A stretch of 64,000 nt of DNA from Methylococcaceae bacterium (GTDB lineage: Bacteria > Pseudomonadota > Gammaproteobacteria > Methylococcales > Methylomonadaceae). Below the pieces are notes generated by a model, which saw nothing but the letters and a program-made list of their open reading frames with translations, was not told the DNA's origin and ran no database searches. This document shows positions 60,428-61,867 of this stretch, piece after piece (the stretch's first letter is position 1; every line of letters starts with the position of its first letter). Where the stretch lies: contig DAOUTG010000002.1 of the NCBI GenBank assembly GCA_030626845.1, positions 1 through 64,000 of the forward strand, in the 5' to 3' direction. Position numbers and translations under genes: made by a program.

Positions 60428-61288
60428 TTAAGCTTCCAATACGACAGAGGCTTTAATTTTTTTCATTGCATTTTTTTCAAGCTGTCTAATACGTTCAGCC
60501 GATACATTATAGCGTGCAGCTAATTCATGTAAGGTCGCTTTTTTATCGGATAACCAGCGACTTGAAAGAATATCAAAGCTACGTTCATCTAATTTAGATA
60601 ATGCGTCACTTAATAATTTTTCTTTGTAACCTTTCCAGTCCGATTGTTCTACTAATAAGGCAGGATCAGACGAATCTTCCATTAAATAACTGGCAGGCGC
60701 ATTATAGGTTTCCTCAGAACCTGCGGCATCAACGGGTAAATCAAAGGCCATATCCCGACCATCCATGCGTTTTTCCATTTCATAAACGACTTTAAGGTCA
60801 ACATTTAAGTTTTCAGCAATCGCTTCGGCATCTAGCTTAGATAACCAACCTAAACCCTTTTTTGATTTACGCAAATTAAAAAATAATTTACGCTGGGCTT
60901 TGGTGGTGGCAATTTTTACTACACGCCAGTTTTTAATCACATATTCATGGATTTCTGCACGAATCCAATGGACGGCAAAAGAAACTAAACGAACACCGAC
61001 TTCGGGGTCAAAACGTTTGACCGCCTTCATTAAACCAATATTACCTTCTTGAATAATATCAGGTAAGGGCAATCCATAACCATTATAACCACGGGCAACA
61101 TGGGCGACAAAACGTAAATTGGACATGACTAATTTTCGTGCAGCATCCAAGTCCCCATCATCTCTATAGCGAACAGCGAGTTCATATTCTTGTTCAGGGG
61201 TTAATTTTGGCATTTGCCCGACAACATTTAAATAACTATCAAATGTACCTACAGATAAATTGACAGGTAAAACTAGTCCCAAACTCAT
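60428..61288 (-). CDS. rpoH: RNA polymerase heat-shock sigma factor sigma-32
   Basis: LTPEQEYELAVRYRDDGDLDAARKLVMSNLRFVAHVARGYNGYGLPLPDIIQEGNIGLMKAVKRFDPEVGVRLVSFAVHWIRAEIHEYVIKNWRVVKIATTKAQRKLFFNLRK (RpoH box region). Confidence 0.97.
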   Translation of the reverse strand: MSLGLVLPVNLSVGTFDSYLNVVGQMPKLTPEQEYELAVRYRDDGDLDAARKLVMSNLRFVAHVARGYNGYGLPLPDIIQEGNIGLMKAVKRFDPEVGVRLVSFAVHWIRAEIHEYVIKNWRVVKIATTKAQRKLFFNLRKSKKGLGWLSKLDAEAIAENLNVDLKVVYEMEKRMDGRDMAFDLPVDAAGSEETYNAPASYLMEDSSDPALLVEQSDWKGYKEKLLSDALSKLDERSFDILSSRWLSDKKATLHELAARYNVSAERIRQLEKNAMKKIKASVVLEA

Positions 61289-61322
61289 ACGATATACCTC
61301 TTGTTTTAAATTTAGCGTAATT

Positions 61323-61349
61323 TTAGCACTCTCTTTGATAGAGTGCTAA
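61323..61349. promoter_or_regulatory. CIRCE element (HrcA operator) upstream of rpoH
   Basis: TTAGCACTC-TCTTTGATA-GAGTGCTAA: exact consensus arms with N9 spacer, 35 bp upstream of the rpoH ATG; on the rpoH strand TTAGCA-N18-TAAAAT overlaps it as a candidate -35/-10. Confidence 0.92.
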
Positions 61350-61638
61350 TAAAAGTAATGATAATTGTGGTTAACATCAAATTATTTACAATGTATTATG
61401 CTGCTATTCTTTAAAAATTACCTAAACTTACTCACATAAGTTTAATGTTGTGTCTTACCCAATTTCTAGTTTCACTTAGTAAACTAAGCCAGCGCTTGAA
61501 AGACAATAAGCTAACCCCGTATAACCTACGGTTTAAAAGTAAGAAAGACAAGGAACGTTTATATGAAAATCTAGTTTTCAACACCTTTATTTATTATACT
61601 TTTAACTAATTATACATAGTTATAGATGAAAACTAAAG

Positions 61639-61695
61639 GTAACTACTCTCTATAAATTCCTCTACAGCCTAGTAAACAATAACCTGAGTAGTTAC
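61639..61695. mobile_element. Candidate 57-bp micro-MITE (IS66-type ends) with 8-bp target duplication
   Basis: AACTAAAG | GTAACTACTC -N37- GAGTAGTTAC | AACTAAAG: perfect 10-bp TIRs abutted by identical 8-bp direct repeats (61631-61638, 61696-61703). Confidence 0.65.
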
Positions 61696-61867
61696 AACTA
61701 AAGAACAGTTGATAGCTCAATGCCTACTCGCTTAAAACTTAAAAATATTAGTGTAATCGTTTTCTTATAACGAGGTAATATTTAGCTTAAAATGATAATC
61801 TAACAAATTAGCTTGATTTGCTATGATAAAATCTTTAGCCAATGCTTTAAAATTAATAGGAAAAGGG

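What the first reader, a model, noticed from the sequence alone, without database searches (positions are those of the whole stretch)
61289..61349. Perfect CIRCE (HrcA operator) over the promoter of rpoH
TTAGCACTC-N9-GAGTGCTAA matches the CIRCE consensus at every arm position with the canonical 9-nt spacer. It sits 35 bp upstream of the rpoH ATG and spans a plausible -35 (TTAGCA)/-10 (TAAAAT) pair. CIRCE/HrcA classically controls groE and dnaK operons (established); HrcA repression of sigma-32 itself would put the whole sigma-32 regulon under GroEL-titrated HrcA, instead of, or in addition to, the E. coli style mRNA thermosensor (inference). I cannot say from memory how widespread this arrangement is.
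Basis: partly seen in the sequence, partly recalled or inferred. Interest (0 to 1): 0.8.

Follow-up and report, generated by a model that had tools for sequence, protein, structure and literature searches.

The report
HrcA operator over heat-shock sigma gene
The gene for the master heat-shock sigma factor in this methane-oxidiser relative carries, on top of its promoter, the operator of the heat-shock repressor HrcA; the arrangement is real and conserved across Beta- and Gammaproteobacteria that keep HrcA, and had already been predicted for another bacterium, so it is a solid but not unprecedented wiring of the two heat-shock systems.

Summary
A perfect CIRCE (TTAGCACTC-N9-GAGTGCTAA) lies at 61323-61349, 34 bp before the rpoH ATG, and overlaps a sigma-70-type promoter. 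The genome has one hrcA and only three CIRCE-like sites (up to 3 mismatches): at rpoH, groESL and hrcA-grpE-dnaK.

With a composite pattern (CIRCE core plus RpoH box), the site is found before rpoH in 148 of 201 genomes of the order (Methylococcales), in 42 of 48 genera, and in 109 of 323 genomes of the class. It tracks hrcA: 106/241 hrcA+ genomes against 3/82 hrcA- genomes in the class sample (p = 2e-13). The same arrangement was predicted for Geobacter sulfurreducens in 2004 (PMC545781), so it is a new member of a known kind.

An unreported-looking detail: in 54% of the related promoters a sigma-E -35 (GGAACTT) stands 16 bp before CIRCE, so that the sigma-E -10 is built from the CIRCE left arm (control 1%). 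This geometry equals the E. coli rpoH P3 promoter. The window's own genus lacks that -35. HrcA binding and heat response were not tested.

The parts
61323..61349 (.). CIRCE, perfect operator of HrcA (TTAGCACTC-N9-GAGTGCTAA); rpoH-sense strand is minus
   Evidence: arms conserved and spacer variable in relatives
61344..61349 (-). sigma-70-type -35 (TTAGCA), inside the CIRCE arm
61320..61325 (-). sigma-70-type -10 (TAAAAT) with TG extension, overlapping the other CIRCE arm
   Evidence: last T conserved in 92% of 184 related promoters
61297..61301 (-). probable ribosome-binding site AGAGG before the rpoH ATG
   Evidence: read from sequence
60428..61288 (-). rpoH, sigma-32 (286 aa)
   Evidence: TIGR02392 391.9 bits

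Best explanation
The palindrome is a CIRCE operator through which HrcA represses transcription of rpoH by covering its promoter. When unfolded protein draws GroEL away from HrcA, HrcA should lose activity, and rpoH is derepressed together with groESL and hrcA-grpE-dnaK; sigma-32 then raises the chaperone and protease genes further. Shown here: operator, promoter overlap, hrcA and the two classical CIRCE targets in the same genome, conservation, and co-occurrence with hrcA. Inferred: HrcA binding, repression, titration by GroEL (established for HrcA in Bacillus subtilis, own knowledge), and the downstream cascade.
For: Perfect CIRCE at 61323-61349. Single hrcA (TIGR00331, 322.8 bits). Only three CIRCE-like sites (up to 3 mismatches) in the genome: rpoH, groESL (C70:38248) and hrcA-grpE-dnaK (C70:40773). 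CIRCE at rpoH in 148/201 genomes and 42/48 genera of the order and 109/323 genomes of the class. Association with hrcA: order 145/178 against 3/23, p = 1e-10; class 106/241 against 3/82, p = 2e-13. Arm positions not required by the search pattern are 88% identical between pairs, spacer 33%, flanks 26-28%. A sigma-32-like promoter (TTGAAA-N14-CCCCATAT) lies 48 bp before dnaK, and a weaker one before clpB.
Against: No binding or expression data. The hrcA association was not corrected for phylogeny. 33 of 178 hrcA+ genomes in the order and 135 of 241 in the class lack a match (the pattern is strict, so this is an upper bound on absence). Three genomes in each sample have the site but no detected hrcA; in the order sample all three are incomplete (91%, 92% and 72%).
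Confidence: 0.87

Rival explanations
1. CIRCE is transcribed from a promoter further upstream and works mainly in the rpoH 5' leader, as an operator-roadblock or as a hairpin acting on the mRNA.
For: Perfect palindromes can form hairpins; other promoter-like sites exist around the intergenic region. Leader effects of CIRCE are described for B. subtilis (own knowledge).
Against: The -10 that overlaps the CIRCE end is conserved across the class, and in many relatives a sigma-E -35 stands just before CIRCE, which places the starts inside or just after it.
Confidence: 0.08
2. rpoH is controlled chiefly after transcription, by an E. coli-like mRNA thermosensor and by chaperone-dependent turnover, and CIRCE has only a minor effect.
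For: Established for E. coli sigma-32 (own knowledge); many regulators act together.
Against: The predicted mRNA (start to +229 of the coding region) folds no better than shuffles, z = 0.34; E. coli has no CIRCE at rpoH (best 7 mismatches) and no hrcA (control). A thermosensor need not raise the total folding energy, so this is weak.
Confidence: 0.15
3. The site is a relic or chance palindrome.
For: A few genomes keep it without a detected hrcA.
Against: Chance expectation 3e-5 per genome; conserved in 42 of 48 genera; absent in most genomes lacking hrcA.
Confidence: 0.01

Closest known systems
CIRCE upstream of rpoH in Geobacter sulfurreducens (predicted, Rodionov 2004, PMC545781)
   Same: Perfect TTAGCACTC-[N9]-GAGTGCTAA before rpoH, listed at position -51, together with CIRCE at groESL and hrcA-grpE-dnaK-dnaJ.
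   Different: Different phylum; one of the species in that study. Here the site is shown through many families of Gammaproteobacteria in the GTDB sense (betas included) and tied to hrcA presence.
HrcA/CIRCE regulon at groESL and dnaK (Bacillus subtilis and many bacteria)
   Same: Same operator, same repressor family, same overlap with a vegetative promoter; groESL and hrcA targets present in this genome.
   Different: The target here is a sigma-factor gene, so repression would propagate to a second regulon.
E. coli rpoH promoter P3 (sigma-E)
   Same: In relatives of the window, GGAACTT-N16-TCTNA stands before rpoH with the geometry of P3 (TGAACTT-N16-TCTGA, found).
   Different: In those relatives its -10 lies inside CIRCE; E. 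coli lacks CIRCE and hrcA; the window's genus lacks the sigma-E -35.

Membership tests
HrcA/CIRCE operator | 9-bp arms TTAGCACTC / GAGTGCTAA with 9-nt spacer | tested here: met
   perfect match
HrcA/CIRCE operator | hrcA in the same genome | tested here: met
   TIGR00331 322.8 bits
HrcA/CIRCE operator | placed at a promoter of a heat-shock gene | tested here: met
   rpoH 34 bp downstream; -35/-10 overlap
HrcA/CIRCE operator | conservation in relatives and loss with hrcA | tested here: met
HrcA/CIRCE operator | binding and repression by HrcA | not testable with these tools
   needs EMSA and an hrcA deletion
sigma-E (P3-like) rpoH promoter, in the window | GGAACTT 15-17 nt before TCTNA | tested here: not met
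   window has ATTATCA at that place, although RpoE is encoded (300.7 bits)
sigma-E (P3-like) rpoH promoter, in relatives | GGAACTT 15-17 nt before TCTNA | tested here: met
   100 of 184 promoters with at most 1 mismatch, control 1%; last A of -10 in 81% with and 36% without the -35
E. coli-type rpoH mRNA thermosensor | stable structure sequestering the start region | tested here: inconclusive
   z = 0.34

The most novel reading that the evidence does not exclude
In Beta- and Gammaproteobacteria that keep HrcA, the conserved sigma-E promoter of rpoH has its -10 element built from the CIRCE left arm, so HrcA gates sigma-E: envelope stress raises sigma-32 fully only when the cytosolic chaperonin is also overloaded. 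E. coli would then be a derived state in which HrcA and CIRCE were lost and the bare sigma-E promoter P3 remained.
Probability: 0.5. Interest if true: 0.68.

Novelty: new member of a known kind. Interest (0 to 1): 0.45.

Why it matters
Sigma-32 control is usually taught from E. coli, which has no HrcA. If HrcA represses rpoH across HrcA-bearing Beta- and Gammaproteobacteria, then the repressor-based and sigma-based heat-shock systems form one cascade there, read out by free GroEL, and the E. coli scheme is what remains after HrcA was lost. The overlay of CIRCE on the sigma-E promoter of rpoH makes a clear, testable prediction about how cytosolic and envelope stress are combined.

Tried and rejected
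Rfam and tRNA scans of the window found nothing, so no known RNA thermometer family is involved. Folding of the rpoH 5' mRNA gave no signal. A sigma-32 pattern scan of the genome was hardly above its control (20 against 14), so only dnaK, and by eye clpB, are cited. The composite pattern was also run over the phylum: 12 of 349 matched, all inside the class; that sample favours taxa with the most complete genomes, and the pattern is fitted to the gamma RpoH box and spacing, so absence in alphas is not proven. Permina and Gelfand 2003, the paper most likely to have noted CIRCE at rpoH in betas and gammas, is not held, so priority could not be settled. None of the open papers looked into describes CIRCE at rpoH in betas or gammas. 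A sigma-E promoter in the window itself was considered and rejected.

Full report
Observation. A perfect CIRCE, TTAGCACTC-TCTTTGATA-GAGTGCTAA, lies at 61323-61349 and is the only match in the window even with three mismatches. In random sequence of this composition 3e-5 perfect copies would be expected in the whole genome. The gene that follows on the minus strand, 60428-61288, is RpoH (TIGR02392, 391.9 bits); 34 bp separate the site from its ATG. A TTAGCA / TAAAAT pair with an 18-bp spacer and a TG extension overlaps both arms.

Genome context. The genome (2.51 Mb, 96% complete) has one hrcA and exactly three CIRCE-like sites with up to three mismatches: rpoH (perfect), groESL (perfect) and hrcA-grpE-dnaK (one mismatch) (gene identities). 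A sigma-32-like promoter TTGAAA-N14-CCCCATAT stands 48 bp before dnaK, and a weaker TTGAAA...CCCCCAAAT before clpB. So the expected targets of both systems are present.

Conservation. A pattern joining the CIRCE core to the RpoH box at rpoH distance found the arrangement in 148 of 201 genomes of the order, 42 of 48 genera. Shared sequence with named records identifies sampled genomes as Methylocaldum, Methylobacter and Methyloglobulus, so the order is Methylococcales, and the window lies in the family of the last two. In the class, 109 of 323 genomes match. In the phylum sample all 12 matches were inside the class.

Link to the repressor. In the order, 145 of 178 hrcA+ genomes but 3 of 23 hrcA- genomes carry the site (p = 1e-10); in the class 106 of 241 against 3 of 82 (p = 2e-13). 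These tests ignore shared ancestry. Arm positions that the pattern did not require are 88% identical between pairs of sequences, while the spacer (33%) and flanks (26-28%) are near random, as expected of an operator.

A second layer in relatives. The conservation profile of the upstream regions showed an unexpected block, GGAACTT, about 16 bp before CIRCE. In 184 distinct promoters it occurs with at most one mismatch in 100 (54%), against 1.0% of control windows. Placed 15-17 nt downstream, the letters TC of the CIRCE left arm plus the first spacer bases form TCTNA, a sigma-E -10; its last A is present in 81% of promoters that have the -35 and in 36% of those that lack it (p = 2e-8). The two halves thus vary together. 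The known sigma-E promoter P3 of E. coli rpoH has the same geometry, TGAACTT-N16-TCTGA, and no CIRCE (that this is P3 is own knowledge). In the window's family, none of 7 genomes without a true RpoE has the -35, against 15 of 33 with RpoE (p = 0.03). The window and its two sampled congeners with the site lack the -35 although they encode RpoE. In this genus, therefore, only the sigma-70-type promoter is seen.

Mechanism. The best-supported account is transcriptional repression of rpoH by HrcA, relieved when GroEL is drawn away by unfolded protein, so that sigma-32 synthesis is coupled to chaperonin occupancy. In relatives with the sigma-E promoter the same operator would also cover the sigma-E start. 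Operator, overlap, conservation and hrcA association are shown; binding, repression, titration and gating are inferred.

Known or new. CIRCE before rpoH was listed for Geobacter sulfurreducens in 2004, at -51, with the same three targets (PMC545781). [quoted passage not shown] The finding is thus a new member of a known kind. The breadth, the quantitative link to hrcA, and the CIRCE / sigma-E overlay were not found in the accessible literature, which is not proof of novelty.

Noticed in passing
184 related rpoH promoters (L006-L154, L180-L219), positions -17 to -10 before CIRCE: Conserved sigma-E -35 GGAACTT with its -10 inside the CIRCE left arm; absent in the window's genus.
   Followed up: yes
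window 61350-61382 (minus), L180, L181: In the window's genus the upstream block TTGAT-TTAA-CACA-TTA is conserved between species in place of the sigma-E -35; its role is unknown.
   Followed up: no
L005 6774-6800 and 6790: The CIRCE of hrcA overlaps the longest-ORF GTG start of hrcA, so the true start is probably a later codon (the GTG before GAAAAGAGG).
   Followed up: no
window 61350-61822: About 470 bp between rpoH and gmk without an ORF of at least 80 aa, tRNA or Rfam match.
   Followed up: partly
order sample, genera g3, g4, g9, g19, g23: The sampled genomes of these Methylococcales genera lack an RpoE above the family cut-off (only weak matches to other sigma factors, or none), and all g23 genomes also lack hrcA and the rpoH CIRCE.
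   Followed up: partly
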